Assembly (NCBI GenBank): GCA_027038295.1
Contig: JALVXD010000135.1
Span: 1 to 41,786 of the forward strand
Reading direction: 5' to 3'
Source of the DNA: Campylobacteraceae bacterium
GTDB lineage: Bacteria; Campylobacterota; Campylobacteria; Campylobacterales; Sulfurovaceae
Length of the DNA stretch: 41,786 nucleotides
Position 1 is the stretch's first letter. Every line of letters starts with the position of its first letter. Both the position numbers and the translations under genes were made by a program. The notes below the pieces were generated by a model. It searched no databases. It was not told where the DNA came from and saw only the letters and a list, made by a program, of their open reading frames with translations. Positions 20,968 through 40,187 of the stretch are shown here, in pieces.

Positions 20968-20988
20968 TATTAACCTTAAATTCTTTTC

Positions 20989-21006
20989 AAGGGGTTTTAC
21001 CCCTTT
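20989..21006. terminator. G+C hairpin between the two HAD genes
   Basis: AAGGGG-TTTTA-CCCCTT stem with a T-rich 3' side (TTTATTT) on the + strand. It could end read-through from the + kinase operon, or partially separate the last HAD gene from its - strand operon. Confidence 0.45.
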
Positions 21007-21020
21007 ATTTCTAGTAAATT

Positions 21021-21758
21021 CTATCCTATATTGACTAAATATTTACTTCCATTTTCTTTAGGTACTATTTTAAAATCTGTTAAGTTCATAAAATCTAAAT
21101 CACTAATATTATCTCCTGCACCTAAAGTCAAAATTGGTTTATATCTATTTATCAAATACTTTACAGCAAATTTTTTATTAAGAAAATGAGGCAAAATAGC
21201 AAAAGAGTTACCATTTTCATATAGATAAAAATCTTTTTCTATATCTAAAAAATCCATTAAATTTTCTCTTATTCTTTTTATCATCTCTTGATCATCTAAA
21301 TTAAATTTATTATAGATACTAATATAATAACTATCTATGATTTTTACTTGAAGCTTTAAATCATTATCCTTAAAATATTGCAATACATTTTTATAGAGTT
21401 TGGTTAATGGTGTAATTTTTTTATAAGAGTCATTCATAACCTTTGTCCATACTTTGTCTTCTTGATTGTCTAAAAGTATAAGCCCTCCAAAATTTAAAAT
21501 AATATATTTAATCTTGAGATTTTTATAAAAAACAGTTCTTTGATATGACGCTAAGTTTCTAGCAGTAGTAGGTATAAAGGTTATTCCTGAGTCTATAATT
21601 GTATCTACTAAAAGTTTTGTACCCTCATAAAAAAAAGAATTTTCTTCACCCTCTTTTGTGTAAGATGCAACAATAGTATTTTTATTAAAATCAGTTTTTC
21701 TTTTGGTTTGAATTAATGTATCATCTATATCACTAAAAAAAAATATTCTTTTTGGCAT
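21021..21758 (-). CDS. HAD-superfamily hydrolase of the Ter biosynthetic module
   Basis: 245 residues. Motif I FFSDIDDTLIQT near residue 6, motif II PTTARNLA near 58, Lys in NKKFAVKYLI near 198, motif IV LGAGDNISDLDFM near 216. A mid-length cap domain fits Cof/sucrose-phosphatase-like HAD enzymes. In Ter gene clusters HAD phosphatases accompany PRTases and are proposed to help make a nucleoside-like metabolite (published genome-context hypothesis). Its start is 1 nt downstream of the StiP-type gene's end. Confidence 0.85.
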   Translation of the reverse strand: MPKRIFFFSDIDDTLIQTKRKTDFNKNTIVASYTKEGEENSFFYEGTKLLVDTIIDSGITFIPTTARNLASYQRTVFYKNLKIKYIILNFGGLILLDNQEDKVWTKVMNDSYKKITPLTKLYKNVLQYFKDNDLKLQVKIIDSYYISIYNKFNLDDQEMIKRIRENLMDFLDIEKDFYLYENGNSFAILPHFLNKKFAVKYLINRYKPILTLGAGDNISDLDFMNLTDFKIVPKENGSKYLVNIG

Positions 21759-21759
21759 T

Positions 21760-22854
21760 TTAGTCCTTTTGTAGCTTTTTAATAATGGCTAGTGCTGTGT
21801 AAGGAAGTGTTTTATCTTCTACAATTTTAACCTGTTTCTCCTTGGCAAGATGTAAAAGATGTCCTATATCTTCACAACTTAAATCTTTGACTAAGATAAT
21901 ATAGGGAACACGTCTTAAAAGCACACGTGTACTTTCGCCAATACCTGGTTTAATATGATTAATATTACTTACACTATATTTTTGCATGATGTTTGCAATA
22001 TAAGCTTCTATATTTTGTTGTAACTGTATATCTTTTTTACGCAAAGCTTTTTTATTAGGTTTTAGGTCTCTAATTATGTTCAAGATATTTTCTATAAACC
22101 ATAAACTCATATCACTTTTTTTATAATTAATATAATATTTACAACCATGAAAATCACCTTTTTGAATATATTTATCATTTAAAATACTTCTACTAACTAA
22201 TCCTGATATAGTAGAATTTAGAGCTGAAGAGGGAATAAGATAATCATCATGTGTAACACTAAAGTCTGCCACACCTGCTATATCTGAAACAACATAAAGT
22301 TTGTTGCTTATCTTTTGACTATAATTATTATTGAACTCTGCAATAAATTTTTTAAGTTCACGGTTAATTACACCTTTCCCTGTCCAGCCATCAAGAAAAA
22401 TTATTTCAGATTGAGGATAAGCTTTTATAATATGCAATAAGGCGATATTATCTATCTCTCTATCTCTGATAATAGAGATAGAATAGTGCTTTACTTCGCG
22501 TTTAAAAACTTCTTTTAACACTCTTTTTAGTAAGACTCCAATAGGTGTTCCTGCACGAACCAAAGAAACCAAAACGATATTATCTTTTTGGTTTAAATAG
22601 TAGGCAAGAGATAAAATATCTTTTGCAAAACGTAGTTTATTTAAATCATAAACCTCATAAAATGTTTTTAAATACTCTTCTGTTGGCTCATATTCTTGAT
22701 TAATCATTTCAGAATAATGAGATTTACCTGATTGTATTAACTTCTCTTTTTTCTCTATTGATGTAAAATCAATATCTATGACTTTAAGTAAAAATTCTAC
22801 ATCATCTTCTAAATAACTTCCATTAAATATCAAAAAAAACCTCCTGAGTATCAA
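21760..22854 (-). CDS. StiP-type phosphoribosyltransferase with C-terminal PELOTA domain
   Basis: 364 residues. The central part has LVRAGTPIGVLLKR near residue 100 and the PRPP-loop-like IIFLDGWTGKGVINRELKK near 151, the pattern of the family annotated as cysteine protease StiP and reinterpreted as a PRTase. The last ~65 residues (GIGESTRVLLRRVPYIILVK onwards, with KEKQVKIVEDKTLPYTALAI) resemble a PELOTA RNA-binding domain. It overlaps the upstream PRTase-TRSP gene by 32 nt, so the pair is certainly coupled. Expected to act with it on a ribosyl-phosphate substrate. Confidence 0.85.
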   Translation of the reverse strand: MILRRFFLIFNGSYLEDDVEFLLKVIDIDFTSIEKKEKLIQSGKSHYSEMINQEYEPTEEYLKTFYEVYDLNKLRFAKDILSLAYYLNQKDNIVLVSLVRAGTPIGVLLKRVLKEVFKREVKHYSISIIRDREIDNIALLHIIKAYPQSEIIFLDGWTGKGVINRELKKFIAEFNNNYSQKISNKLYVVSDIAGVADFSVTHDDYLIPSSALNSTISGLVSRSILNDKYIQKGDFHGCKYYINYKKSDMSLWFIENILNIIRDLKPNKKALRKKDIQLQQNIEAYIANIMQKYSVSNINHIKPGIGESTRVLLRRVPYIILVKDLSCEDIGHLLHLAKEKQVKIVEDKTLPYTALAIIKKLQKD

Positions 22855-23902
22855 ATTTACTTGCTAACTTCTCCTTAAGGTCAAAGTTTTTGGGTAGTGT
22901 CGTAGTCTCATAACATATTATCACTTTATCATACTCTCTATCTATCACATTATATAAAAAGTTATCAATATTTTCAAAATAATTATCTTTAAAAGAAATT
23001 TTAGAAGTGATAATCCCATCAATATTAATAGGGCTTCTTGTTGTGGCTTGAAAATAGGTTTCAATACCAGAATCTTCTAAATATTGTGCCAAGAGATAAG
23101 GAACATACATAAATTCTGCAGTACCTAAAACCAAAACTTTTTTTGATTTTAAATCCTCTATATTTAGATACTTTTTAATATCTATATCTAGTTTTTTTGT
23201 TGCATATCTTGCAAAATTATATGGAATAATACCTTCCAGAGATGAAGCATCTTTGGCTTCTGATTTTATATTAGTGGCTAACTCTTCATGATTTTCCTCA
23301 AAACTAAAGTTCCCTTTATACAGAGAATATATTTCAAAATTTGAGTATTTTTTTGTTGTCCAATCTAAAATACTTACAAGTGCATACTCTTTAACTTGCG
23401 GAAGTACTTTTTGTAATGTCATAATTAAATTATTAGCTGTATTTCCAGTAGTTACTTCATCATCTATAAGTATAACTCTTGTAATCTCATTCAATAAGCA
23501 TTGTAGCTCTTTATCTTTAGGAGCATAAAAAACATGACTAGGAGCATGAGAATGTTCTTCTTGAAAAGACAATAAAACCTTATGAGAAGTTTTAAACCTT
23601 GAAGAGTGCATATAAAAACTATTGTCGAGATTTAAAGCTTCATAAACCCCTTGCCCTAAACCTGTAGCTGCTTCTGCAAAACCTATAAAAAGGGTTTTTC
23701 CTCTACTTTTAGGAATTAAGTCTGCCAACTCTTTATGTATAGTTCTCATAAGTGAAGGTTTACATGGAATATGTTTACCTATAACTTTACTTACAAAGAA
23801 AAAACCTCTTTTTTTATTTATACGAGAACTATAACCTGTTAAACGCTCTAATATTTGGTTTTGTTCAACTTTCAATACACCTGTTTTTAGAATAATACCC
23901 AT
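22823..23902 (-). CDS. Phosphoribosyltransferase with C-terminal TRSP domain
   Basis: 359 residues. PRPP-binding motif VILIDDEVTTGNTANNLI near residue 140, with FIGFAEAATGLGQGVYEAL near 73 upstream, as in PRTase_2-type Ter proteins. From about residue 235 a Rossmann-like module with KKVLVLGTAEFMYVPYLLA and TTRSPI matches the TRSP domain. This pair is characteristic of the Ter biosynthetic operons. The start at 23902 gives a short extra N-terminus; an internal start is possible. The gene begins about 18 nt after terB. Confidence 0.87.
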   Translation of the reverse strand: MGIILKTGVLKVEQNQILERLTGYSSRINKKRGFFFVSKVIGKHIPCKPSLMRTIHKELADLIPKSRGKTLFIGFAEAATGLGQGVYEALNLDNSFYMHSSRFKTSHKVLLSFQEEHSHAPSHVFYAPKDKELQCLLNEITRVILIDDEVTTGNTANNLIMTLQKVLPQVKEYALVSILDWTTKKYSNFEIYSLYKGNFSFEENHEELATNIKSEAKDASSLEGIIPYNFARYATKKLDIDIKKYLNIEDLKSKKVLVLGTAEFMYVPYLLAQYLEDSGIETYFQATTRSPINIDGIITSKISFKDNYFENIDNFLYNVIDREYDKVIICYETTTLPKNFDLKEKLASKFDTQEVFFDI

Positions 23903-23920
23903 GCTTTACTATCTAATCTT

Positions 23921-24394
23921 TTACGACTTAATCGCATTTAAAATTTTATTTTGCATTTCTACTTCTAATGGGTCTAAGTTTCCATCACTTTGTGCAATAT
24001 GAGCAATAAGTGCTTCTATCATTGGTGGATACTCTGGATAGTCCTTCATTTTCCCTAATTCAGAGAGTAATTTTGCTTCCATCAATATCCATTTTGTTTT
24101 ACTCTCAATAGCTTTTGACATCTCTTCTATATGAAACTCATAAAGTTCTATTGCCTCGGTAGTAAGATTTAAATCATTAATTTCATCAATATCATTAATT
24201 AAATCAATTGATGCAATAATCTCTTCCGTCTCAGCTTTTTTATCTGCCATCGTCATAAGTGCCATACTTAGCACTAATGCATTAACAAATTTTTTTTCTT
24301 TAGAAAAGCTCTCTGGTGTATATTGTCTAAGCTTTCTACCTGCTTCACCAAAAAGTTCACTTGTTCTGTTTTTTATTTTATTCCAATCTAACAT
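23921..24394 (-). CDS. terB: TerB-family protein
   Basis: 157 residues, all-helical, standard TerB length. FVNALVLSMALMTMADKKAE near residue 37 and IAHIAQSDGNLDPLEVEM near 130 are the paired acidic helices that bind metal in the TerB fold (a duplicated DnaJ-like/TerB arrangement). It may sense metals at the inner face of the membrane with TerC. Followed closely by the PRTase gene and preceded by terA with a 13-nt gap. Confidence 0.87.
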   Translation of the reverse strand: MLDWNKIKNRTSELFGEAGRKLRQYTPESFSKEKKFVNALVLSMALMTMADKKAETEEIIASIDLINDIDEINDLNLTTEAIELYEFHIEEMSKAIESKTKWILMEAKLLSELGKMKDYPEYPPMIEALIAHIAQSDGNLDPLEVEMQNKILNAIKS

Positions 24395-24407
24395 ATCTTA
24401 TCCTTTT

Positions 24408-25064
24408 TTATTTACTGCCTGAAGTCCAATTAAATCCAAAACCAAAATCTTTATCTAAATTCTTATGTCCTGAATAATATTTTTCTAATTTCTCTATCTT
24501 TAAATTATTGTTTTCATTCAATAAAACTGCTATTCCAACCATCGTTTTAGAAGAATCATCATTTAATTTAATAATAATGTCAGATTCATTTTCTTGTTTA
24601 ATGCTTGCAATACCATTAGCTTCTTTCCAATTAGGTGCACCTTCATAAATAAAAGCAAAGACTATTGCTAAATCTAATTCTTCTATCTTTGAAAATCTTA
24701 AAGTTTCTCCTTCTTGATTATTTCCACTTCTATCATCACCGTCAAGTAAGATGTAAGGAGATTTTGTTAAAGAGCCAAAGCTGTCCCCTAAGGCTTGAAC
24801 AACACCTTGTCTACCGTTTTTTAAACGATACATACATCCTAAATCTAAATCTAAATCACTAGAAGATAATTTATTTTTTACCTTTTCAAATAGATTATTT
24901 GAAGTTGTATTATCTATTTTACTATTCCAATTTAGATTAAACGAGAGTATTTCATTTTTCTTTTTTAAATTAATAGAATGACTATCTCCTTTTTTAGATA
25001 AATTAATAGTTGATAGCTTTTTAGGGGATTTTTTTGTATTTATCCTATTGAAAAAATCTGCCAT
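24408..25064 (-). CDS. terA: TerA-like protein (short form)
   Basis: 218 residues, shorter than classical TerA (about 385). CMYRLKNGRQGVVQALG near residue 90, SPYILLDGDDRSG near 118 and GETLRFSK near 135 match the conserved TerA/TerD-like core including the DGDD calcium loop. The N-terminal ~50 residues (LSTINLSKKGDSHSINLKKK) hold a partial TerD-like strand pattern. The missing first TerD-like domain makes it a short variant rather than a truncation: reading frame, start and ribosome site all look intact. Confidence 0.82.
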   Translation of the reverse strand: MADFFNRINTKKSPKKLSTINLSKKGDSHSINLKKKNEILSFNLNWNSKIDNTTSNNLFEKVKNKLSSSDLDLDLGCMYRLKNGRQGVVQALGDSFGSLTKSPYILLDGDDRSGNNQEGETLRFSKIEELDLAIVFAFIYEGAPNWKEANGIASIKQENESDIIIKLNDDSSKTMVGIAVLLNENNNLKIEKLEKYYSGHKNLDKDFGFGFNWTSGSK

Positions 25065-25135
25065 GTTTCTTTCCTTTATTTAATATATGCTTGAGAATCT
25101 CAAATATGTTATTTTGATATTCCCAAATTTACAGT

Positions 25136-25164
25136 AAAAAGATGAAGAGTATCTTCATCTTTTT
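25136..25164. terminator. Perfect 13-bp hairpin with A/T flanks, strong bidirectional terminator
   Basis: AAAAAGATGAAGA-GTA-TCTTCATCTTTTT lies in the 108-bp gap between the TerD-family gene ending at 25173 and terA. U-tracts exist in both directions. On the - strand it may attenuate transcription so that terA-terB-PRTase are made at a lower level than the two TerD proteins. Confidence 0.75.
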
Positions 25165-25172
25165 TATACTTA

Positions 25173-25778
25173 TTATAAATATTTTGCTTGTACAGTCTGT
25201 AGTGTTTGTTCTAACTTTCCATCTCTTGTTGGCTCGCCAATTGCAGCAAATTTCCACTCACCATTTCTTCTATAAAGTTTACCCAAAATCATTGAAACAT
25301 AACCAGCAAATTGAGCATCACCTGATACATTATATGTTGCTACAATATTATTTACACGATCAGGTGTACCTTCATAAAGTCTAATTGATGCAAAAGGAAT
25401 CGTAGCAAAATCTTGACCTTGATATGAGTTAAGTACAAAAACAACATTATCAATATTAGCAGGAATTTGAGGCAAATTGATTTGAATAACTTCATTATCT
25501 AATCCATCATCTCCATCAACATCACCTACTGTATCATCTCCAGAGTGAACAACTCCTGCACTATTTAAGTTACCAAAATAAATAACATCTACTAAATTTT
25601 TATTACTATCAAAAGTACCTACCGATAAATCCAAATCTACAGCCTCTTTCTTCGGACCACCAAAAAAACCTTTTGTTTCTATAGCACCCCAGTTTGCACC
25701 AATACAAAAAGAGGTTAGATCACTTCCATTTTCTTTTTTAAGGTTTATCTTTTGACCTTTTGCTAAATCAATTGCCAT
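25173..25778 (-). CDS. TerD-family protein (TerX/TerZ-like)
   Basis: 201 residues, diverged from both TerD copies. It starts [18 protein letters not shown], then has LDLSVGTFD, IYFGNLNSAGVVHSGDD, the acidic GDVDGDDGLDNE calcium loop, and FASIRLYEGT. The insert WGAIETKGFFGGPKKEAVD near residue 30 distinguishes TerX/TerZ-type members from TerD. The start overlaps the terD stop (TAATG), so the two are translationally coupled. Followed by a strong hairpin. Confidence 0.88.
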   Translation of the reverse strand: MAIDLAKGQKINLKKENGSDLTSFCIGANWGAIETKGFFGGPKKEAVDLDLSVGTFDSNKNLVDVIYFGNLNSAGVVHSGDDTVGDVDGDDGLDNEVIQINLPQIPANIDNVVFVLNSYQGQDFATIPFASIRLYEGTPDRVNNIVATYNVSGDAQFAGYVSMILGKLYRRNGEWKFAAIGEPTRDGKLEQTLQTVQAKYL

Positions 25779-26356
25779 TATACACTTACTCCATAAGTTT
25801 TACAGAATCCTGCAAGTCCTTCATTGAATCCTGCACCAACTGCTTTGAAATTCCAACTATCATCTTTACGGTAAAGCTCACCAAAATTAATCGCTGTTTC
25901 ACTTGAATAATCTTCATCAAGCTCATATTTAGTAATTTCTACTTCACCTTCTTGATTCAAAATTCTAATAAATGAATTGTTCACTTGTCCAAAATTTTGA
26001 CCTCTGCTATCTGCTTCATCAATAGTTACTGTAAAAATAATTTTATCTACGTCAGCTGCTATTTTTGATAAATCAATTTCAATAGCTTCATCATCACCAT
26101 CACCCTCACCTGTTCTATTATCACCTTGATGAACAACTGCACCATCAGGAGAAGTAGTATTATTGTAAAAAATAAAGTGAGCATCACTTAAAACTTTACC
26201 ATCTTTACCCACCAAAAAAAGTGATGCATCTAAATCAAATTGAGCACCTGTATCTGTTGCATTTGCATCCCAACCTAAACCCACTTTGATATTTTTTAAT
26301 CCTGGAGCTTCTTTACTTAATGAAACTCTTCCACCTTTACTTAAACTTACAGCCAT
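25778..26356 (-). CDS. terD: TerD-family stress protein (second copy)
   Basis: 192 residues, close paralogue of the protein at 13564-14136: [65 protein letters not shown] and [15 protein letters not shown]. All calcium-loop acidic residues are retained. AAGGATTAACT precedes the ATG as ribosome site, and CATGATATACT about 45 nt upstream is a candidate extended -10. First gene of the - strand ter operon. The two terD copies thus bracket the island, each leading a converging operon. Confidence 0.93.
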
Positions 26357-26902: not shown

Positions 26903-27691
26903 CTAGTTAAAAGCCAATTTTTGATGAGTTGAAGAAAGCTTTAAAAACTTATCAATAGAGTAAGCTAAAATGAATAATTTTAGCTTAACAAGAAATCCAC
27001 GAATAGAAGTAGCTCTGATGACTTTACCAAATTTAGCAGTAATAACAGAGAAAGCTGTCTCAACTCCTTTTCTAATTTTTCGTTTGCTTTTATGATTTGG
27101 GTCTTGCTCCATATTTTTACGTTTAAATGCAGAAAGTTCAATCCCAAATTGAGCTAAAAACTTTTCTAGTTTTCCCGAAATATAGCCTTTGTCTCCAATT
27201 ACAATAGAATTTTTAGGAAGTGTTGGAATAAATTTATAAGAAGCTGTAGTATCGTGCATTGAACCCTCTGAAATATAACATGAAACAGGTTCTTGATTTG
27301 TAGTAACTACCATATGAACTTTAAATCCATAAAAGTATTTTTTCTTGGATGCGTTATACCCTTTAAGTGAAACATCTCTCCAAAGTCTTGACCTTTTCTC
27401 TCTTTGAATTTGACATATCTCTACAGGAAAAGAGTCCACTGAATAGATTTGTGAACCATTTAATTTTTTAAACAGTTCACTTAAAAAGACAAATAGCTCT
27501 TCTATCTCTTCCTCTAACTGATTTATTCTTCTTGTAAATCTTGAATACTCGACTTCATTCACTAATTTCATACCCATTCCATAATAATGTGCTTTTGTAT
27601 AATTCCCATTAAAATCAGCCATTGCCAAATACCCTAAAAATAATACTTCACTGTCACTTATCTCTGCTAATTTATGCTCTTCTTTTCTCAT
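26903..27691 (-). CDS. IS982-family transposase, N-terminus in another frame
   Basis: 262 residues. DDE-type core: VDSFPVEICQ near residue 85, ISEGSMHDTTASYKFIP near 140 and VIGDKGYISGKLEKFLAQFG near 163, followed by KRKIRKGVETAFSVI near 205 with the catalytic Glu. The true start is probably ATG 27750 (ribosome site AGAGG): that frame reads MEQRMITIYCLIEEFF then stops, and LKGVM of this frame continues it if one T is added in the run at 27704-27708. Either a disabling 1-nt loss or a -1 frameshift site. Confidence 0.85.
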   Translation of the reverse strand: MRKEEHKLAEISDSEVLFLGYLAMADFNGNYTKAHYYGMGMKLVNEVEYSRFTRRINQLEEEIEELFVFLSELFKKLNGSQIYSVDSFPVEICQIQREKRSRLWRDVSLKGYNASKKKYFYGFKVHMVVTTNQEPVSCYISEGSMHDTTASYKFIPTLPKNSIVIGDKGYISGKLEKFLAQFGIELSAFKRKNMEQDPNHKSKRKIRKGVETAFSVITAKFGKVIRATSIRGFLVKLKLFILAYSIDKFLKLSSTHQKLAFN

Positions 27692-27918: not shown

Positions 27919-30900
27919 TTTCTAAACCACCTACACGGCAGTAAACAAACTTTGCTTTATCAATCAACTTGGCTCTCTTTTCTAAACCACCTACACGGCA
28001 GTAAACCTATAAAGTTCGCTCTGATGCAGTTCGCATTGTTTCTAAACCACCTACACGGCAGTAAACGTACTAAAGAGAATTACAGTAACTATGCTGGTTT
28101 TCTAAACCACCTACACGGCAGTAAACGCTGTCAAAAGCTGTTTTTGGGTAACTTTTTTTTTCTAAACCACCTACACGGCAGTAAACAGCTCCACGACCAT
28201 AAATAATCTGATTTTTATTTTCTAAACCACCTACACGGCAGTAAACGTTCCGTACACTAACAAAGGTATAGGCATGTTTTTCTAAACCACCTACACGGCA
28301 GTAAACTAGAGAAGATGATGAAGCTTGAAGATGAACTGGTTTCTAAACCACCTACACGGCAGTAAACTAGACAAAGAAAAACCACGCCTCAAACATCTAT
28401 TTCTAAACCACCTACACGGCAGTAAACTAGGGGGTCTTAAAAATGTTTTTATAGCTTTGTTTCTAAACCACCTACACGGCAGTAAACGAAATTTTAAAAG
28501 CATTGCTTATATCTGCATTTTTCTAAACCACCTACACGGCAGTAAACCAAGTCCTTTGAGCGTTTCTTCCGTAAAATCATTTTCTAAACCACCTACACGG
28601 CAGTAAACGAGAACAAGTACTTGCTCATCTTTGCGAATCGTTTCTAAACCACCTACACGGCAGTAAACGCTACTACATGCACATAGACCCACGCTCTATA
28701 TTTCTAAACCACCTACACGGCAGTAAACCTTGATAGTTCGCCTTGTAGAAGTTTGTGGATTTTCTAAACCACCTACACGGCAGTAAACTTGAAATTAGTT
28801 CAGTAAAGCCATTAATTAATTTTCTAAACCACCTACACGGCAGTAAACATTATGATATTAAGCTCATAAAAGAGTCTCTTTTTCTAAACCACCTACACGG
28901 CAGTAAACGGAATGGGAAGAGTTTACGCCCTTTTGCTGGTTTTCTAAACCACCTACACGGCAGTAAACTTATCTTAGAGACAATTTTATCACCCAAAATA
29001 TTTCTAAACCACCTACACGGCAGTAAACAAGTTGATGCAGTAATTACCGATGTTCCGTTTTTTCTAAACCACCTACACGGCAGTAAACGGGTGCTTGTTG
29101 ATGTGCGTACTCCTGTATTTTTTCTAAACCACCTACACGGCAGTAAACGACTTTTTTGCTATGCCCCTGAGTCATTTGTGTTTCTAAACCACCTACACGG
29201 CAGTAAACAGAGTCATAGCCTGTATTTATCTCATCATTTGTTTCTAAACCACCTACACGGCAGTAAACAGAAGATGAGCTTGTAGGTATGTACTTTGCTT
29301 TTTCTAAACCACCTACACGGCAGTAAACACCCTTTAATCGTTTTTTCTTTTTGTCTAAAATTTCTAAACCACCTACACGGCAGTAAACGTGGGATGATAA
29401 CCCGTCCAAACTTGGCAGGTTTTCTAAACCACCTACACGGCAGTAAACCCACTTCACTACTGCTGGACTCTGCAACTTTATTTCTAAACCACCTACACGG
29501 CAGTAAACATGGAAAAGCACACTCTATGGGGCATCGTTCGTTTCTAAACCACCTACACGGCAGTAAACGACTGCTCTGCTCTGAAAGCACAACTCCAAGA
29601 TTTCTAAACCACCTACACGGCAGTAAACACATACCCAAAGAGGCTGTAGTGTTGCTATGATTTCTAAACCACCTACACGGCAGTAAACGACACTCGTAGA
29701 CGTTGGTTAGGGGTTGATATTTTCTAAACCACCTACACGGCAGTAAACACTTTATGAAATCAGTAGAATTTAACGCTGATTTTCTAAACCACCTACACGG
29801 CAGTAAACCACTCGCAGGTGCTACACGATGGACAGAAGATTTTCTAAACCACCTACACGGCAGTAAACGTTTATACGGCTCTACATCAACAGCAGGTGCA
29901 TTTCTAAACCACCTACACGGCAGTAAACATGACTTTAAGGCTCTCCAAGCAGAGTATAAATTTCTAAACCACCTACACGGCAGTAAACTTATGTCGCTGT
30001 TTGATACCATTGCCCTACATTTTCTAAACCACCTACACGGCAGTAAACTAGTACGTATACCAGAAGCTTTTAACCTTACTTTTCTAAACCACCTACACGG
30101 CAGTAAACTAGAAACACCCTCATGAGCCAAACCAGTAACATTTCTAAACCACCTACACGGCAGTAAACACCTTATCTCCAAACATATCTCGTCTTGTAGA
30201 TTTCTAAACCACCTACACGGCAGTAAACTAGAGTGGTCACCTTGTAAGTTGTACTCAACTTTTCTAAACCACCTACACGGCAGTAAACAACCTAGTGATA
30301 GCTTTGGAAAAGATGAACAATTTCTAAACCACCTACACGGCAGTAAACTATAAAAGCTGAAGAGAAACGTACCACCGTTGTTTCTAAACCACCTACACGG
30401 CAGTAAACAGTAGGAGAAATAACATTTGCCAACTCTAAAATTTCTAAACCACCTACACGGCAGTAAACGATAAAAGAGGTAAAGTAGTTGAGGTCTTAAA
30501 TTTCTAAACCACCTACACGGCAGTAAACACAAAAGGTATGGATTTATTCGCTACTGCTAATTTCTAAACCACCTACACGGCAGTAAACATAGTACTAATG
30601 AATGTACAAATATTGTGAATTTTCTAAACCACCTACACGGCAGTAAACGAAAATTTAATGATATACTCTTTTTCAGAGTATTTCTAAACCACCTACACGG
30701 CAGTAAACTTTTATAGCCTTAGCTGGAATTTTGGCACTTTTTTCTAAACCACCTACACGGCAGTAAACATAACTTGACTTATGCTCTTGTTTGTTGCGTT
30801 TTTCTAAACCACCTACACGGCAGTAAACACACCCAAAACACTTCCAAAACTGCTGTATTTTTTCTAAACCACCTACACGGCAGTAAACGGTGTACCCTTT

Positions 30901-32689
30901 TCTATCATCACGGCTGCAAATTTCTAAACCACCTACACGGCAGTAAACCCCTAAGACATGCCCAATACGTTTGTTTTAACTTTCTAAACCACCTACACGG
31001 CAGTAAACGTTTATGTACTCTTTGCATTACCAATATTACGTTTCTAAACCACCTACACGGCAGTAAACTTTTTAAATATTTAATTTTAGTATTGACATTT
31101 TTTCTAAACCACCTACACGGCAGTAAACGTAATAAGGAAAACTATAGTAACTACGCTGGTTTTCTAAACCACCTACACGGCAGTAAACGAGTGTTAGCAA
31201 TGTAAGAGTATTTGGCTGTATTTCTAAACCACCTACACGGCAGTAAACAAAAAGGTTACAAGCTAATAGGTGCATTCGATTTTCTAAACCACCTACACGG
31301 CAGTAAACCCTTTGCAAAGTGGGGAACCCAGCAACGCTTATTTCTAAACCACCTACACGGCAGTAAACAAAATCTCCGTTACTTGTTTGCTTTTTAAACA
31401 TTTCTAAACCACCTACACGGCAGTAAACAACGCTCCATTTTGCATGGTTAAAATACGTTTTTTCTAAACCACCTACACGGCAGTAAACAAGAGGGCAGGG
31501 CTTCACAAAGGTTTTTTATGTTTCTAAACCACCTACACGGCAGTAAACAATGGTAAAACAAGTCTCGGAGAGGGGTGTTTTTTCTAAACCACCTACACGG
31601 CAGTAAACACATTAAAAAGTATCGTGAAACGTCATAATGATTTCTAAACCACCTACACGGCAGTAAACCGACTCATGCACACGCATAGCTGCAACCTCTG
31701 TTTCTAAACCACCTACACGGCAGTAAACGCTATCATGCTCTTTGCAATAGTTACATCTTTTTTCTAAACCACCTACACGGCAGTAAACCTTCATCAGGCG
31801 AAACGGTTGAAATGATTACATTTCTAAACCACCTACACGGCAGTAAACATATGTTTCTATTGCATTTACTCCTTTTTGAAATTTCTAAACCACCTACACG
31901 GCAGTAAACTTGTAAACTTTACAGCTACTAAAATGATAGAGTTTCTAAACCACCTACACGGCAGTAAACTTAAACAGATTTGAAAATGGTTACAGTATGG
32001 ATTTCTAAACCACCTACACGGCAGTAAACGAGGGTAGGGCAGTAGATGGCAACGTCCAGATTTTCTAAACCACCTACACGGCAGTAAACACATGGGGCAG
32101 AGCCTTTTAGTTCCAGTATTATTTCTAAACCACCTACACGGCAGTAAACCTCCAAGAAAAATAGCAAACGTTAATTTTGACTTTCTAAACCACCTACACG
32201 GCAGTAAACTTGAGCCGTTATGGGATTAGAAAGGGGGTTTTTTTCTAAACCACCTACACGGCAGTAAACATACTTGTTCTTCCCTACAATCTCTAACAGT
32301 ATTTCTAAACCACCTACACGGCAGTAAACATAAGTGAAAGCACTTTCCCTTTTTTTTCAATTTTCTAAACCACCTACACGGCAGTAAACCAATACTTGAA
32401 TTAGATGGAGATGATGACATGTTTCTAAACCACCTACACGGCAGTAAACGTGGTGGGAATGACCCAAAAAATGAAGCTGATTTTCTAAACCACCTACACG
32501 GCAGTAAACGGGAAAGTGATTTTATAGATAACTATGGTGGTTTTCTAAACCACCTACACGGCAGTAAACAACACTAACATATAACGAGGAGACGAACAAA
32601 TTTTCTAAACCACCTACACGGCAGTAAACTTTGGGTGCGTTTCATCCTTAAAAAGTTCAAGTTTCTAAACCACCTACACGGCAGTAAAC
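27919..32689 (-). CRISPR. Type I-F CRISPR array, 80 repeats and 79 spacers
   Basis: 80 copies of a 28-bp repeat, all identical by eye. Read on the - strand it starts GTTTACTGCC, has the Cas6f hairpin CTGCC-GTGTA-GGTGG and ends TTTAGAAA (the 8-nt 5' handle), the type I-F pattern. Spacers are 32 nt, except three of 33 nt (28307-28339, 28548-28580, 31849-31881). Leader and newest spacers are at the right, next to cas6f; the oldest end is at 27919, about 100 bp from the IS. No decayed terminal repeat is visible. Two spacers are sister sequences. Confidence 0.99.
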
Positions 32690-32828
32690 ACCAAAAAATC
32701 ATTTTCAAATCAAATAATTCTCGCATATAGAAGCATTTTAACCAAAAATACCTTTATTTTTACGACTTTTTTTAAAGCCCTAAAAATAGGCATTTTTATC
32801 TTGGGCTAATTTTTTTGGTATTTTTTGG
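32690..32828 (-). promoter_or_regulatory. CRISPR leader with nested inverted repeats
   Basis: 139 bp, about 75% A+T, between cas6f and the first repeat. GGTATTTTTTGGTTAA (32817-32832) and TTAACCAAAAATACC (32738-32752) form a long inverted repeat (one-base difference), enclosing AGCCC (32776-32780) with GGGCT (32803-32807). The inner pair could terminate the cas transcript. AATCAAATAATTC (32708-32720) matches the IHF consensus except the last base; IHF bending aids type I-F spacer insertion in gammaproteobacteria, but its use here is uncertain. Confidence 0.7.
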
Positions 32829-33431
32829 TTAAAAAGAGGGTACTGTACTCTCGTGACTTAACCCATAAGTAGAAAACAACCCATCTTTTGGATTGTCTCT
32901 CTCTATTTTTTCTATAAAAATTTTCAACTCTTGATTGCTTGATAGACTTTGCATATTAATATATGGTAACTTATTCTCTTTTTTTACTTTCTCATACTTC
33001 TCTTCTGTCTCTACAAACTTTTTTAGAGCCTCCTCATACTCAATCCCCTCTCTTTTTGCATACCGTTTTGCCAGTCTTCTTATCTCTGAATTTGACTTAA
33101 ATCGTTTTCTGCTAAATGAAACAAAACCATCTACATTAGCAGGAACTTTTTGTATCTCTGAAACAGTTATGTAGTCCATTAGTCGATTTAACCAATGAGC
33201 TAGATTTAACTGCTCTAGCTCCTCTTTGGTTTTGGCAAAGAGTCGTAGTTTGTTTCCAAGAGGAAATTTGCTCTCTTGGTAGTTTGGGAAAGAGAGACCA
33301 ACAGAGACTAGATTTTTTTCATCTCTAACCTCTACTAAGGCTAGGTGAATTTGAGAGTAAAGCTTTTTCCACACAAAACCAAGTGTTATCTCTGTATCTT
33401 TTAAGAGTTCTATCTCTATGTAGTAGTTCAT
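32829..33431 (-). CDS. cas6f: Cas6f (Csy4) crRNA-processing endoribonuclease
   Basis: 200 residues. It begins MNYYIEIELL like other Csy4 proteins. The catalytic His lies in SQIHLALVE near residue 30, and the Ser region in INMQSLSSNQE near 160. It ends STYGLSHESTVPSF, matching the usual YGLS-x-G-x-V-P-x-F tail. It cleaves the repeat below the CTGCC/GGTGG stem to leave an 8-nt 5' handle and stays on the 3' hairpin. Last gene of the cas operon, 6 nt after csy3 and about 140 bp before the array. Confidence 0.96.
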   Translation of the reverse strand: MNYYIEIELLKDTEITLGFVWKKLYSQIHLALVEVRDEKNLVSVGLSFPNYQESKFPLGNKLRLFAKTKEELEQLNLAHWLNRLMDYITVSEIQKVPANVDGFVSFSRKRFKSNSEIRRLAKRYAKREGIEYEEALKKFVETEEKYEKVKKENKLPYINMQSLSSNQELKIFIEKIERDNPKDGLFSTYGLSHESTVPSF

Positions 33432-33437: not shown

Positions 33438-34460
33438 CTACTTGTCACTTTGACCAAAAACACCACCACGCACAAGCACAGCCATAACATAGTGTTCATC
33501 TTCTACTCTGTCAAGCTTTTGACCTTGGGCAAATTTATCAAAGTGGGTGTAAAAATCTTGTTTCTCTTTTGGGGTTCTGAAAGCTTTACCCATATTGGTT
33601 ACAGCACCATAAGGCTCTATGGCTATAGCTCCATTTCCACTCTCTGTGCCAAATTCAGGATACCACGTATCTATACTTCTTAAAGCATTTCCTAATTTTT
33701 GAGAGTGCATTGAAGCCACGTTATCTACATGATATAAGATTTTACTCTTTTTCCCTGCCCCTTTGTCTAAAACCAACTCTTCACTAGGGTAAACCTCTTG
33801 GGCTTTTCCTATTTTGGCATAGGTTGTAACCTCTAACATTAAAAACTCATCATCACTAGAGAGTGCTTTAGCTATATTTGCTCCCAAATCAATAACCTCT
33901 TTATTATCACTACTCATAGAGCGAATATCAAAACTTTTAGCATCAAAATTCCAAGTTTTATTACCTATCAAATCTTTTACTTCAATCTCAATAAACTCTG
34001 TTCCTACTCTGTTTCTCCATAAAAATCGTCCATTGGCTAAGTTAATAGCATAACGCAATCCAAGTTCTCTAAAAGCCTCTTTTTCAATGTACCCTGCTAC
34101 AGCCTCTTGATAACTCTTTAAAAAACTACTGTTATTACAAGCCGATGGCTCTTTGATACCTCCTAAAACTTTAAGTGTAAATTTTAACACCAAAGTATCT
34201 TGCTCTGACTCTAAAGCACAAGAGTCTACCGTTTGTAAATTTGCTTTTTCAACTTCTGCATTTAGTTTAGCAGGGTCATTTTTAATCGCAGGTTTTAGAC
34301 GGTTGGCGATTGTCCCTCTAACTGATTTTTCTACCAATTTCAGAGGTGTTTTATTCTCTCTATTTTCCCAAGTTGTACCATACATCATTCCATCAGATGG
34401 AACTAATTTTTTCTCAAATGCTAAAACCGAAGCCACTTTACTATTTTTATCTTTTGCCAT
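33438..34460 (-). CDS. csy3: Csy3 (Cas7f) backbone subunit of the type I-F Cascade
   Basis: 340 residues, normal length. The start KVASVLAFEKKLVPSDGMMY is the typical Csy3 opening. Further family-like stretches are NLANGRFLWRNRVGTEFIEI near residue 142 and YPEFGTESGNGAIAIEPYGA near 270, then a Lys-rich FYTHFDKFAQGQKLD region. Six copies coat the 32-nt spacer part of the crRNA. Between csy2 (gap 12 nt) and cas6f (gap 6 nt) in one operon. Confidence 0.96.
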   Translation of the reverse strand: MAKDKNSKVASVLAFEKKLVPSDGMMYGTTWENRENKTPLKLVEKSVRGTIANRLKPAIKNDPAKLNAEVEKANLQTVDSCALESEQDTLVLKFTLKVLGGIKEPSACNNSSFLKSYQEAVAGYIEKEAFRELGLRYAINLANGRFLWRNRVGTEFIEIEVKDLIGNKTWNFDAKSFDIRSMSSDNKEVIDLGANIAKALSSDDEFLMLEVTTYAKIGKAQEVYPSEELVLDKGAGKKSKILYHVDNVASMHSQKLGNALRSIDTWYPEFGTESGNGAIAIEPYGAVTNMGKAFRTPKEKQDFYTHFDKFAQGQKLDRVEDEHYVMAVLVRGGVFGQSDK

Positions 34461-34472: not shown

Positions 34473-35360
34473 TTAGTTATTTTTATTTTGTTCACACAGA
34501 TACAATCCATGCTCTTTATCTACGCTATAGTGCCATAAAATCTCATCTAACGACTCAATCTTATAGAGCATCTTAAACTCACCCAATGTCACAACCGACT
34601 CTGCAAAACGGTGAGGTTTGTTTGCATCGCGTTGATTTTTGGCTTTTCCCAACTCTGAAATGGCTTGAAAACCTGTAGCTATTGGTACTATCCACCCTGC
34701 TGTTTTTCGTTTGCTACTCCAAAGAACTTTGCCCTCTTCATCTTTTTGGGAAGAGTTAGTAATAGTGACATATTCAAGTAGGGCATCCATAGCATCTAAA
34801 CCACGGCTCATCGCCTCTAGCATTAAATCTCTTCGCTCTACAATCGCATAGCTTGGCATTAGTTTTCCTCTAATACGCCGAATATCCTCTTCATTATCAT
34901 CCTCTACTCTCTCAATGGTAGGCTTTTTAAATCCAAAAATATCACCACTAGCCATTTTCATACGAGATTGTAAATGGTGTGAAACTCGCTCTTTAAATCT
35001 CTCTTCATCTCGTTTATGCAGACCTGAAAACTCAATAATCAACGAAACATCAAGATGAATTCTCGCCTCCTCTATAAACGCAGGTCGTTTTCCATCTTTG
35101 TCTACAGGGTTACTTGTACCAATAATTGAATTGACATAATCTCCAACTCCTTTATGCACTTGCAAATCAGCCTTGTGACTTAACACGGCTGTTGCATTAA
35201 ACTTTAACTCTTCAAAACCATCACTATTGAGCTTTCGTTGCAGTGCATGAATCGCCCCTAACCATGCCGACATAGCAGGAAATCCAATGGTAAAAGGACT
35301 AGAGAGAGCATTTGCATTGTGTACCAAAATATGAGGTATTATTAAAACAGTTTTTATCAT
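34473..35360 (-). CDS. csy2: Csy2 (Cas5f) subunit of the type I-F Cascade
   Basis: 295 residues. IIPHILVHNANALSSPFTIG near residue 7 and FPAMSAWLGAIHALQRKLN near 28 are the typical N-terminal Csy2 segments. Csy2 binds the 5' handle of the crRNA and, with Csy1, recognises the PAM-proximal DNA. It overlaps csy1 by 4 nt, so the two are made together. Confidence 0.94.
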   Translation of the reverse strand: MIKTVLIIPHILVHNANALSSPFTIGFPAMSAWLGAIHALQRKLNSDGFEELKFNATAVLSHKADLQVHKGVGDYVNSIIGTSNPVDKDGKRPAFIEEARIHLDVSLIIEFSGLHKRDEERFKERVSHHLQSRMKMASGDIFGFKKPTIERVEDDNEEDIRRIRGKLMPSYAIVERRDLMLEAMSRGLDAMDALLEYVTITNSSQKDEEGKVLWSSKRKTAGWIVPIATGFQAISELGKAKNQRDANKPHRFAESVVTLGEFKMLYKIESLDEILWHYSVDKEHGLYLCEQNKNN

Positions 35361-36640
35361 CGTAACGCCTCCTTATATTTTTCAAGAAGAGTTAATAAGT
35401 GTAGATACTCCCCTTTTCCAAACTTGATATACTCTTTTTTCCCTACAACCTTTTTATAACCAACATCAATAACCCATCGGGCTATCTCTTTAAGCAATTT
35501 TTCTAACCACTCATCACTCTCTTTTCGCTCTTTTTGGTAGGCTTCACTCTCGATTAGCCATACCTTTTGATTAGATTTAAGTTTTGAATTTTTTTCATAA
35601 TATTGACTCGTTGATACTTCTCGAACGGCATACATTCGCTCTATAATTCTATCTATTATCTCGCCATAACGATAATCTCTACCCTCACGAATATTGATAT
35701 TGTTGTAGTCCGTTTTATAAATGTTATCTAAGGCAAAAAAAGTATTTTTGAACTCCCAAATGGTTATGGAGTTTTTAAAAAAGTCCTCTTTTGGAAAGCG
35801 AATATCTCTACTCTCTAAAATTGGTGGCATAGAGTTTAATAATTGTGCTTTTCCTCCATTTCGATTGTTCAATACTGAAATATTTTGAGGTTTAGTCCCT
35901 CCATAACCAATAGTAGTCAATCCAAAAATCTCTCTATAGTTATCTTCTGAATATTCATCATTTCGCTTCTTATTCCGTAAAGTTTTTAAAAGCTCTTTCT
36001 CCTCTTCATCCTCTCCAAATCGTATTTTGTTGAATCGTTTTCTTAACTCAAATACCATACCAGAGTTGGTTAAAATAGAGAGTTGATGATAGTTGTCATC
36101 TACAGGAAAATAGACCTGCTTTATCTTAGAACTTGTAACCAATTCGGTTGAGCTTGTAACCATTGCTAAAAACTCATCTCGTAATTCATTATAATCTTTA
36201 GTTTTAATGGTTAAAAGTGAAGTAGCTAGTGAAGTCTCTTTTTCTATATGCTCTATAAGCTGTTTTCCATCAGGCATAATTAGGGTTAAAAATTTATGTA
36301 CATCTAACGCGGCCGCATTTCCAAGTGCATCGCTTTGAACCTCTACATTACCTGTTCGTAAAAAGCCATCTCTTCTATGCTCTACATTAGCAATAATCGA
36401 AGTGACATCACCATTTTTATTTTTTCTCGAACTCGGATGAGAAAAAGTACAAGGGTGTGTTGAGATAGAGATTTGCTTTGCTCTCTTAGAAGCATTGGGT
36501 AACCAAACTTCACGAGAGAACTCAATGGCACTCTTTTCATGTAACTCTAAAACCTCACTCTCTTCCATTGAAGATTTAAGATTTTTCTTAATCCAAGCCT
36601 CTTTTCGTTCATCGAAAAACTTGGATATTGTTTCATTCAT
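35357..36640 (-). CDS. csy1: Csy1 (Cas8f) large subunit of the type I-F Cascade
   Basis: 427 residues, expected size. NASKRAKQISISTHPCTFSH near residue 51 matches the typical Csy1 opening, with GYGGTKPQNISVLNNRNGG near 252 as the other conserved block. It contacts the CC PAM (as GG on the target strand) and the start of the R-loop. Preceded by AAAGGAGA as ribosome site. It is first in the csy operon, which has its own 259-bp upstream region carrying the degenerate mini-array. Confidence 0.95.
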   Translation of the reverse strand: MNETISKFFDERKEAWIKKNLKSSMEESEVLELHEKSAIEFSREVWLPNASKRAKQISISTHPCTFSHPSSRKNKNGDVTSIIANVEHRRDGFLRTGNVEVQSDALGNAAALDVHKFLTLIMPDGKQLIEHIEKETSLATSLLTIKTKDYNELRDEFLAMVTSSTELVTSSKIKQVYFPVDDNYHQLSILTNSGMVFELRKRFNKIRFGEDEEEKELLKTLRNKKRNDEYSEDNYREIFGLTTIGYGGTKPQNISVLNNRNGGKAQLLNSMPPILESRDIRFPKEDFFKNSITIWEFKNTFFALDNIYKTDYNNINIREGRDYRYGEIIDRIIERMYAVREVSTSQYYEKNSKLKSNQKVWLIESEAYQKERKESDEWLEKLLKEIARWVIDVGYKKVVGKKEYIKFGKGEYLHLLTLLEKYKEALR

Positions 36641-36899: not shown

Positions 36900-39800
36900 T
36901 TAAAGCTTTACCAAACCAAATTGGTCACTATACTCATATTTACTACCCTCATAATAACCAAAACTCAACTCTCCATACTTGATAGATACAGCCCTTTTAG
37001 ATTTATCGAACTCCTCTATCAATGCATTATAATCTCTTTGTAGCCATAAGCCCTCTTTTAAACTCTCATCAATCTCTATTTTCTCTATCTGTAGTATCTC
37101 CTCTCTTTTTATAATATTATCGTAGCCCTCTATCTCACAAAAAGAGTAGGCTTTCTCATTCTCATCATAAACTAAAAACACCTTTTGTGTGGGTTCACTC
37201 TCTCTAAAAGGGTGTAGATATTGAGGGTGAGCTGTCAAAAACCAATGTTCATTTAAATAGCCCTCTAAACCTGTAGCTCCCTTTTTATCATAAGAGGTTA
37301 AAGCTTTATGCGTTTGATAATGCTCCAAATCACTTAGAGATGATTTATAGTTTAATTTTTTAGGTTTTATGACTCTAGCTGTTGCGTCTAGTCGTTCATT
37401 TAATGCTTTGGTATCTACCAATTCCTCTATATTGTGAGTGTTTAAAGTAATACCTACTTCATAACCAGGGTATTTAAAATAAGCCTCTCCCTCTTCATCA
37501 TTGGCTTTAAAAGCTTTGTAGTTGTACTGCATAAGAGCAATATTTTGGTGGGTTATGGCTAAATTTCGATGTCGCAAAACACGCCCTGCTAGTTGAATAA
37601 TAGAACGATAAGAAGATGGCTCAATAACAGCCCAATCAAAATCATGGTCTCGCCCAACTTCTTCTACAGGTGTTGCCACCACTACAAAAAGTATATCTTT
37701 AGCTTTAGAAGCATCTAAATAAGAACGAATAATTTTATCTTCAAACGCTATTGGTTCTTCATCCTCTTGCTCTTTACGTTTTAAAATCTTCTCTAGGTAA
37801 CGCTCTTGGGCTTGTCGTAAAAGCAGTACTTGGTTAGAGTGATACGCCATAACCCTAATCTCTACATTTTCACTTTTTATTTGGGCTAAAAACTTTGCCA
37901 ATGCTACACATGGACGAATATTTGCCACACGAACCACACCAAATGAGACATGAATACCACTCTTTTTATCTACAGTAAAGTGCTGTTTATGTTTTTCTAT
38001 CATGGCACTCTTTATTTTAAAAAAATAACTCTCCTCTTTTGTCTCATCATCTTCAAAATCACACTCTTGCATTAACTCTTGACAAGCAACAATCTCTACT
38101 TTTCGTTTAACAGGCTCTTTTGCTAAATTTACAATACGTTTTTGCACAAATTTACGATGTGACTCTCCATAACCCTTTATAGCCTCTTGGCTATCAAAAC
38201 TTTTAATCAAAGAGACATCTGTTTTAAACTCATCTATCCAAGCACAAACTATCTCATTTTTAGCCTCTCGTGTTTTGCAAAAGAGTTGCCAACCTTTTTT
38301 GTAAGCATTAAAATACCCCTCTGCCAAATCAGGAGGAATGGTCGCCGAAGAAATCATTACTTTTCGTCCCAACATACCTGCAAGATGAATCAAACGCCCA
38401 ATAGCAATCAAATCAGACCCTGTAAAGTCATCAATCTCATCAATAACCAAATCAGAACTCATAAGACGCAAAGAGGGTAAGATATATTTCCCACCTCTTT
38501 TTGTCTCAGTTGCACCCATAAGATGGTCAATGGTACAGACCAAAACAGGAGCATAGAGAAAAGCTTTATCTTTTGCTTTTTTAAGCACCGTAGCTAACCC
38601 CTCTTCGGGAATGCTAGAGTCAAAATCTATCCACTCATCAAGCAGAGACTCACTTGACTCTGAACCATAATTATCTACGCTATCATCATCTTGCTCTTTG
38701 GCTCTGTTATGAAGCTCTAAAACAGCTTTAGAACCAATCAAAACAGCCAACTCACTATCATCTAACCCGATACGCTCTCGGTACTCGTCACCTGTTTGTA
38801 GCGTAAGAGTTCTAAGCCCCAAAGCCAAAATATATCGAAGTGTGTTCTCCTCATTAGCTACAGACTGCATCACTTTTGCATTGGCAAAGGTCTTTCCACA
38901 ACCTGTACTTGCCATATTGACAGCAAAGAAGCCTTGTTTTATGCTTTTGTCTTCCATAAAGGGTTTGATTTTAGCTACTGCCTTATCTTGCCAAGAAAAA
39001 GCTTTTGGGCTTCTCTTTTTCAATACTCGATTATCTTCAACCAAGGGTGGCTCTTTTTCAAAAGCAGGTAAAAGATGTACTGTTTTTAAAGCACTCTTCA
39101 TAACACCACAAAGATGTTCATCTAATTTCTGTTTCATCTTTTTATCGTTATCGGTATTGGCAAAAAGGTTTGTGGTATCTTTCCAACTCAAATTGGCATC
39201 CTGTGAGGAGTAGTAGTGGTCGCCCAACATCAAAGTTAACCTTGCATGGTGTAAAACCATTCTATAGCTTCCATCAGCCATAGACTCCTCTAATAAATCA
39301 AGAGAGCCAAGCAGACGATTTGACCACTTTTTAAGCTCTTTTGTCCATTTATCAGAATGACTTAACAAGCCCTTTGGAAAAATAAAACATTTTTTTAAAT
39401 GCTTCTGATACTCATCTTCTTCATATCTATTTTCATATCCCCAAGATTGTGTAATGTACTCAAAAACATCATCCATAGAGTTGGCTTCTACACCATTCCA
39501 CCCACTTCTAAGCTCTTTTTTTACTGTTGATTCACTCGGTAACCGATGGTGCGAAACAATAAGCCACATAACAAGCTTTGCCGAATTTGGAAGATTTTCT
39601 AAAACTTTTTTATCTACATTTTGAATACTCTCTTTTAAAGCCTCCTCATCTATCTCTCCCAACGCAAAAGCCTTTAACCATCCCTCTTCATCAGCTCCAT
39701 TTTGGGCAATAAAAGCATTGAGCAACATACATGAAATCCACTCATGACGAATAGGGTCGCCTTTTTTGGTTGAAGATTTCAGTTTTTCTTGAAAAAGTTG

Positions 39801-40187
39801 GGTTGATTTACCCCAGTCATGAAGCAGAGCAGAGAGAGCAACCAAAGATTTAATAAGAGGTAGATACTTCCAATCACTCTCTTTGTATTTGTCTAAAATA
39901 GTTTTTTGTGTACGATTTACTGGCACAACCCCTTCACTATTAAACCTATCTCGATTACCCACTATCCACATAAGCTCAACCCTTCTACTACTACGTATCC
40001 AATGACAACTTACAGCCGTACTTTTAGAAGCAGTTTGTCTAAGCAGTTTTTTAACAGCCTTTAACCCCTCTTGAGTAATAATAGTCTGCCAAGTGTTATC
40101 ACCTATTCTATTAGCAAAAGAGTCTAAGACTCTTCTTGTTTTTTTTAGAGCATTTTTTTCACATTGAGAGATAAATGTTACTATCAT
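36900..40187 (-). CDS. cas3: Cas2-3 fusion: adaptation subunit plus HD nuclease-helicase (type I-F)
   Basis: 1095 residues. The N-terminal ~95 are the Cas2-like domain (MIVTFISQCEKNALKKTRRV), fused as in all I-F systems. HD nuclease: LSALLHDWGKS near residue 115 and IRHEWIS near 146. Helicase: Walker A MASTGCGKTFANAK near 424, DEID box LVIDEIDDFTG near 575, motif III SSATIPPDLA near 606 and motif VI QLAGRVLRHR near 870. All catalytic motifs look intact. It degrades DNA bound by the Csy complex and joins Cas1 in spacer integration. It overlaps cas1 by 4 nt. Confidence 0.97.
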   Translation of the reverse strand: MIVTFISQCEKNALKKTRRVLDSFANRIGDNTWQTIITQEGLKAVKKLLRQTASKSTAVSCHWIRSSRRVELMWIVGNRDRFNSEGVVPVNRTQKTILDKYKESDWKYLPLIKSLVALSALLHDWGKSTQLFQEKLKSSTKKGDPIRHEWISCMLLNAFIAQNGADEEGWLKAFALGEIDEEALKESIQNVDKKVLENLPNSAKLVMWLIVSHHRLPSESTVKKELRSGWNGVEANSMDDVFEYITQSWGYENRYEEDEYQKHLKKCFIFPKGLLSHSDKWTKELKKWSNRLLGSLDLLEESMADGSYRMVLHHARLTLMLGDHYYSSQDANLSWKDTTNLFANTDNDKKMKQKLDEHLCGVMKSALKTVHLLPAFEKEPPLVEDNRVLKKRSPKAFSWQDKAVAKIKPFMEDKSIKQGFFAVNMASTGCGKTFANAKVMQSVANEENTLRYILALGLRTLTLQTGDEYRERIGLDDSELAVLIGSKAVLELHNRAKEQDDDSVDNYGSESSESLLDEWIDFDSSIPEEGLATVLKKAKDKAFLYAPVLVCTIDHLMGATETKRGGKYILPSLRLMSSDLVIDEIDDFTGSDLIAIGRLIHLAGMLGRKVMISSATIPPDLAEGYFNAYKKGWQLFCKTREAKNEIVCAWIDEFKTDVSLIKSFDSQEAIKGYGESHRKFVQKRIVNLAKEPVKRKVEIVACQELMQECDFEDDETKEESYFFKIKSAMIEKHKQHFTVDKKSGIHVSFGVVRVANIRPCVALAKFLAQIKSENVEIRVMAYHSNQVLLLRQAQERYLEKILKRKEQEDEEPIAFEDKIIRSYLDASKAKDILFVVVATPVEEVGRDHDFDWAVIEPSSYRSIIQLAGRVLRHRNLAITHQNIALMQYNYKAFKANDEEGEAYFKYPGYEVGITLNTHNIEELVDTKALNERLDATARVIKPKKLNYKSSLSDLEHYQTHKALTSYDKKGATGLEGYLNEHWFLTAHPQYLHPFRESEPTQKVFLVYDENEKAYSFCEIEGYDNIIKREEILQIEKIEIDESLKEGLWLQRDYNALIEEFDKSKRAVSIKYGELSFGYYEGSKYEYSDQFGLVKL

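What the first reader, a model, noticed from the sequence alone, without database searches (positions are those of the whole stretch)
28067..31160. Two sister spacers encode the same peptide with mostly synonymous differences
Spacers 28067-28098 and 31129-31160 are 51 positions apart in the array and match at 26 of 32 bases. Read on the + strand they encode (T/N)-K-E-N-Y-S-N-Y-A-G; five of six differences are third-codon changes. So both come from the same coding site in two diverged relatives (phage or plasmid), captured at different times. In crRNA numbering from the handle one mismatch falls at seed position 7, which would blunt the older spacer against the newer variant and fits re-acquisition after escape or by priming.
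Basis: partly seen in the sequence, partly recalled or inferred. Interest (0 to 1): 0.75.

Follow-up and report, generated by a model that had tools for sequence, protein, structure and literature searches.

The report
Twin CRISPR spacers, one coding site
A bacterial CRISPR memory array holds two look-alike entries that were very probably copied, long apart in time, from the same stretch of one gene in two distantly related mobile elements (phages or plasmids); it is a neat natural example of repeat infection by relatives, but of a known kind, and the invader itself was not found.

Summary
Spacers 28067-28098 (#77 of 79 counted from the leader) and 31129-31160 (#26) match at 26 of 32 bases in the same register. 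The next best of 3081 same-register pairs is 19/32. The system is type I-F1, and #26 is the younger. In one + strand frame they read TKENYSNYAG and NKENYSNYAG: 5 of 6 differences are synonymous transitions. That pattern alone is only moderate evidence (random-mutation control P 0.02-0.06), but with the mostly coding nature of phage and plasmid DNA it makes a shared coding site very likely. In-array duplication and decay is excluded because all 80 repeats are identical.

The "escape, seed position 7, priming" part is not supported. A seed mismatch is expected by chance 85% of the time at this divergence, none of the six differences is in the five PAM-proximal bases, and 19% mostly synonymous divergence looks like standing diversity.

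No protospacer was found in viral contigs, phages, plasmids, 84,980 species genomes or relatives, so PAM, gene and element are untested. Older/newer spacer pairs on overlapping target sites are already described in Legionella (PMC5071653). Modest interest.

The parts
27919..32689 (-). CRISPR array, 80 identical 28-nt repeats and 79 spacers; crRNA sense is the - strand, leader side at 32690 and above
   Evidence: orientation from cas6f adjacency, the far-end variant repeat in a relative's array and A/T preference at crRNA base 1
28067..28098 (-). older sister spacer, #77 from the leader; + strand frame from the third base reads TKENYSNYAG
31129..31160 (-). younger sister spacer, #26 from the leader; + strand frame from the third base reads NKENYSNYAG; 26/32 identical to #77
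32690..32828 (-). presumed leader, A/T-rich stretch between the array and cas6f
   Evidence: position; sequence not alignable with the leader side of the related array in G117
32829..33431 (-). Cas6f/Csy4
   Evidence: TIGR02563, 142 bits, cut-off 36
33438..34460 (-). Csy3 (Cas7f)
   Evidence: TIGR02566, 413 bits, cut-off 158
34473..35360 (-). Csy2 (Cas5f)
   Evidence: TIGR02565, 210 bits, cut-off 154
35357..36640 (-). Csy1 (Cas8f)
   Evidence: TIGR02564, 168.4 bits, just under its cut-off of 169.4, E 2e-49
36900..40187 (-). Cas2-3 fusion (Cas3f)
   Evidence: TIGR02562, 961 bits, cut-off 566; full-length tblastn to plasmid Cas3f
40184..41134 (-). Cas1f
   Evidence: TIGR03637, 469 bits, cut-off 150

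Best explanation
The two spacers are independent type I-F1 acquisitions, separated by about 50 later insertions, from the same PAM-defined site in the same gene of two diverged relatives of one mobile element family (phage or plasmid). The gene encodes ...x-(T/N)-K-E-N-Y-S-N-Y-A-G... on the + strand of the window, so both crRNAs are antisense to it. The shared register follows because the adaptation complex sets the spacer end by the PAM. Most differences are synonymous because both relatives kept the peptide. Shown: pair, register, identity, open frame, system type. Inferred: coding, element type, PAM, repeat exposure. With six mismatches (one in the seed) the older crRNA probably could not clear the newer variant, so a second spacer was useful; whether the older one primed its capture is undecided.
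For: 26/32 in register against a next best of 19/32 in 3081 pairs. Only one open frame with 1 residue change; five synonymous transitions; pS 1.0, pN 0.04. All 80 repeats identical, so spacer decay at 19% is excluded. Complete type I-F1 cas set. Orientation: 63 of 79 crRNAs start with A/T (P 9e-4), the other end does not (45 of 79), as reported for type I-F acquisition (PMC5059440, section heading). The peptide pattern has no other exact place in the own genome, so the target is foreign to what is assembled.
Against: No protospacer found in any searched collection. The synonymous pattern alone has P 0.02-0.06 and was tested after it was seen. Two hits on one site need either many spacers from this family or a hot spot: for a 40-kb genome the expected number of same-PAM pairs is 0.08 with 20 spacers from the family and 1.26 with all 79.
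Confidence: 0.88

Rival explanations
1. Re-acquisition after escape: the element first infected with the #77 sequence, mutated under pressure from that spacer, and the mutant was recaptured by priming from #77.
For: #77 is older, one of six differences is in the seed. Type I priming tolerates many mismatches (up to 13 in type I-E, passage in PMC4117759). Legionella shows older mismatched and newer perfect spacers on overlapping sites (PMC5071653, section 12).
Against: 0 of 6 differences in the first five bases and 1 of 6 in the first eight, chance P of at least one 0.85; viruses under pressure from this kind of immunity show mismatch enrichment in the PAM-proximal five bases (PMC6452263, passages). 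19% divergence, mostly synonymous. Type I-F priming puts new spacers to the sides of the primed site (PMC5059440, PMC4117759, passages). Spacers #25 and #24, next younger, find no target in 34 genus genomes at 3 mismatches or fewer, so clustering could not be tested.
Confidence: 0.15
2. Duplication of one repeat-spacer unit inside the array followed by mutation of one copy.
For: Duplications within arrays are known (PMC2886076, figure-legend passage).
Against: 80 of 80 repeats identical while the spacer pair differs at 6/32; at that rate zero changes in 2240 repeat bases is impossible. Neighbouring spacers are not duplicated. Decay would not be synonymous.
Confidence: 0.01
3. Both variants come from one genome that carries two diverged paralogues of the gene, or from one mixed population at nearly the same time.
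For: Not excluded; the target is unseen.
Against: 51 array positions apart, so not one acquisition burst; one-spacer-per-site sampling of paralogues is a special case.
Confidence: 0.07
4. Chance resemblance between spacers from unrelated targets.
For: None.
Against: Binomial expectation about 7e-7 over all pairs; best of 30 control arrays 22/31.
Confidence: 0.005

Closest known systems
Legionella pneumophila Toronto-2005 type I-C spacer pairs on LME-1 (PMC5071653, section 12 read)
   Same: Two spacers of different age in one array on overlapping sites of one element family, the older mismatched to the present element.
   Different: There the element is known, the older spacer's defect is in the PAM or seed, and escape was argued from it. 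Here the target is unknown, the register is identical, and the differences are spread and mostly synonymous.
Primed and interference-driven adaptation in type I-F, Pectobacterium atrosepticum (PMC4117759, PMC5059440, passages)
   Same: Same system type, 32/33-nt spacers, A/T preference at spacer base 1.
   Different: Laboratory priming gives clusters at the sides of the primed site, not a second spacer at the same site in a relative; that clustering could not be tested here.
Sulfolobus islandicus spacers against SIRV and SSV viruses (PMC6452263, passages)
   Same: Spacer sets that match diverged relatives of one virus family with mismatches, and spacer age compared with the number of mismatches.
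   Different: There mismatches against SIRVs are enriched next to the PAM; here they are not.

Membership tests
Type I-F1 CRISPR-Cas | Cas1f, Cas2-3 fusion, Csy1, Csy2, Csy3, Cas6f in one operon | tested here: met
   NCBIfam models for all six, five over cut-off and Csy1 1 bit under
Type I-F1 CRISPR-Cas | 28-nt repeat and mostly 32-nt spacers | tested here: met
   80 repeats of 28 nt; 76 spacers of 32 nt and 3 of 33 nt
Type I-F1 CRISPR-Cas | CC PAM 5' of the protospacer in crRNA sense | not testable with these tools
   no protospacer found for any spacer searched
Sister spacers from homologous sites of related elements | same register and identity far above chance | tested here: met
   26/32 at zero shift
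Sister spacers from homologous sites of related elements | both protospacers located in related genomes | tested here: inconclusive
   none found
Re-acquisition after escape or by priming | differences concentrated in PAM or seed | tested here: not met
   1 of 6 in first 8 bases, expected 1.5; 0 of 6 in first 5; PAM unseen
Re-acquisition after escape or by priming | younger neighbouring spacers clustered around the same site | tested here: inconclusive
   #25 and #24 searched in 34 genomes, no target

The most novel reading that the evidence does not exclude
The KENYSNYAG site is a preferred, repeatedly sampled site: strong purifying selection on the peptide and a local acquisition hot spot make type I-F1 arrays of this lineage return to the same PAM in one gene across highly diverged relatives, so that the array holds an allelic series of one essential site. 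The two spacers then give two time-ordered alleles of an unsequenced element.
Probability: 0.1. Interest if true: 0.5.

Novelty: new member of a known kind. Interest (0 to 1): 0.3.

Why it matters
If both protospacers were found, the pair would give two time-ordered alleles of one element family from a single array and a direct test of whether an older, six-mismatch spacer still protects or primes. As it stands it is a clean natural illustration that one host lineage met diverged relatives of the same element again, and that a seed mismatch by itself is no evidence of escape.

Tried and rejected
Target search for the peptide. Exact KENYSNYAG back-translated: 0 in viral contigs; 2 in 84,980 species genomes, a sulfatase-like frame (by its look) with R for S in a Cytophagales MAG and a place in an Ignavibacteria MAG where the listing shows no ORF in that frame; both taken as chance. 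Relaxed patterns in viral contigs: KExYxNYAG 7 loci, NY[WSN]NYAGG 11 loci (8 of these are one family of about 610-aa marine phage proteins with NYRNYAGG), ENYxNYAGG 0, KENYxxYAG 9 loci. None is a convincing protospacer. Best lead: L260, a 72-aa ORF of a 131-kb viral contig reading NCTKENYDYYAGALDAL, 25/32 identical to #77 and followed by GC, not GG. Given that it was fetched by the pattern, a match this good has P about 0.03 per hit, with about 7 distinct hits, and the reversed-spacer control also gave a 7-mismatch hit in 60 kb of that contig: treated as chance. L008, a 66-aa phage ORF MNKEQYTNYAGAVYAG, is no better. Neither ORF has a family (best phrog_24659 at E 0.056 for L260's) and L260's finds nothing among phages by tblastn.

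Single-spacer blastn of #77 and #26 against phages and plasmids: chance matches only, best 20 of 20 bases in Vibrio phages at E 0.08; the annotated Vibrio phage gene there runs on the opposite strand. Peptide pattern in relatives: 175 family genomes gave, besides this array, only HldE-like in one; 397 class genomes with up to 2 mismatches gave 4 other genomes against 4 in the reversed control.

All 79 spacers against fetched DNA, local scans: 106 loci (110 loaded, 1.07 Mb in all, the 4 from this array skipped), 28 mobile-element loci of genus genomes, some overlapping, 0.25 Mb, 80 phage loci 0.70 Mb, 15 loci 0.11 Mb, 3 loci 0.06 Mb: nothing below 7 mismatches. Reversed-spacer controls also had nothing below 7; real counts at 7-9 mismatches were up to about 2.5 times the control's, with the same site often recurring in related loci, and three of the 7-mismatch hits lie in loci fetched by the peptide pattern. 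Two related type I-F arrays in the family (G117, 26 spacers; G048, 9 spacers) share no spacer with this one. Leader comparison with G117: no conservation above shuffles, so orientation rests on the other evidence.

Paper searches: (open-access library only). No paper with synonymous sister spacers turned up in these; that is not proof of absence.

Full report
What is there. The window carries a type I-F1 CRISPR-Cas locus: Cas1f, Cas2-3, Csy1, Csy2, Csy3 and Cas6f on the - strand (41134 down to 32829, and for Cas3f), followed by an array of 80 identical 28-nt repeats and 79 spacers at 27919-32689. The own genome holds no other copy of this repeat: the 80 places counted there are the 80 of the window. 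The window's conjugation-type VirD4 has Campylobacter plasmid proteins among its best relatives (11 of the 12 rows listed, about 50% identity); the host itself is not named by any search.

Orientation. crRNAs read on the - strand, and the leader side is at the high-coordinate end. Cas6f adjoins that end. A related array in another genus of the family (G117) has the same arrangement, with Cas6f next to its high end and the one variant repeat at the far end. Of 79 crRNAs, 63 start with A or T and only 2 with G (P 9e-4 and 4e-5), while the opposite spacer end shows no A/T excess (45 of 79); A/T preference at the first spacer base is reported for type I-F acquisition (PMC5059440, heading and passages). 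So #77 (28067) is the older and #26 (31129) the younger spacer. The leader sequence itself was not conserved with G117.

The pair. #77 and #26 agree at 26 of 32 bases at zero shift. Among 3081 same-register pairs the next best are 19 and 18; allowing shifts to 12 and both strands, the next best pair is 15/20, and 30 Markov arrays reach at most 22/31. They are homologous. They are the only such pair in the array.

Coding. Frame +3 gives TKENYSNYAG and NKENYSNYAG; the other two frames open in both spacers differ at 6 of 10 residues. Five differences are synonymous transitions at two-fold sites; the sixth is an ACT/AAT (Thr/Asn) change in the first codon of the frame. Nei-Gojobori counts give pS 1.0 and pN 0.04. 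Random sixfold mutation of either spacer gives at most one residue change in an open frame in 2-6% of trials, so the pattern by itself is suggestive. Since mobile-element genomes are mostly coding (recalled, no call), a shared coding site is nonetheless by far the likeliest reading.

Not a duplication. All 2240 repeat bases are identical across the array. A spacer copy drifting by 6 of 32 while no repeat changes is not credible, and neighbours are not duplicated.

Escape and priming. The differences fall at crRNA positions 7, 16, 19, 22, 25 and 29. None is at the every-sixth positions that do not pair (6, 12, 18, 24, 30; recalled, as is the 8-base seed), so all six should count. One in the first eight is what chance gives (expected 1.5; P of at least one 0.85). 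Viruses under demonstrable CRISPR pressure show enrichment in the five PAM-proximal bases (PMC6452263, passages); here none is there. The differences track codon structure rather than the seed. The older crRNA would probably fail on the newer variant (six mismatches; inference), but that follows from divergence and not from escape. Priming remains possible, since many mismatches are tolerated (PMC4117759, passage on type I-E), but type I-F priming places new spacers at the sides of the primed site (PMC4117759, PMC5059440, passages), and the clustering it predicts could not be tested without the target.

Same PAM twice. With 35% GC (assumed), a 40-kb genome has about 2450 CC sites. Random sampling gives 0.08 same-site pairs expected if 20 of the spacers come from this family and 1.26 if all 79 do. 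So either the family supplied a large share of the array or the site is a hot spot; both are untested.

Target search. Five pattern scans and three phage-terminase-guided fetches of viral contigs, one scan of species genomes, four blastn searches with the two spacers, pattern searches in 175 family and 397 class genomes, and local scans of all 79 spacers against about 2 Mb of fetched phage and mobile-element DNA found no credible protospacer. The nearest look-alike, a small ORF in viral contig L260 reading TKENYDYYAGA, is within chance for the way it was fetched.

Known or new. Pairs of older and newer spacers on overlapping sites of one element are described for Legionella (PMC5071653, section 12). 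This pair is a new member of that kind, unusual for its identical register and its mostly synonymous divergence.

Noticed in passing
window 27919-32689: First crRNA base is A or T in 63 of 79 spacers and G in only 2, a natural-array echo of the laboratory-reported A/T preference of type I-F acquisition.
   Followed up: partly
window 28307, 28368, 28428, 30049, 30109, 30229: Six of 79 spacers begin with TAG on the + strand (PAM-distal end), three of them in a row (#73, #72, #71).
   Followed up: no
window 3109-8125: Conjugation-type genes (VirD4-like; relaxase-like by its look, no family search) at the left end, so the window's contig may hold an integrated conjugative element or plasmid piece.
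   Followed up: no
window 26903-27691: Transposase-like ORF beside the leader-distal end of the array (by its look, no family search).
   Followed up: no
window 13564-26356: A cluster with TerD-like, TerC-like, VWA-like, phosphatase-like and kinase-like ORFs (by their look, no family search), resembling tellurite-resistance/stress operons.
   Followed up: no
L015, L017, L024, L025 and four more loci: A family of about 610-aa marine phage proteins with a conserved NYRNYAGG stretch; function not determined.
   Followed up: partly
L170 (G117:C6:24000-30000): A second type I-F array of the family with a near-identical repeat (1-2 mismatches over 25 bases in the rows listed) and 26 spacers, none shared with this window.
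   Followed up: partly
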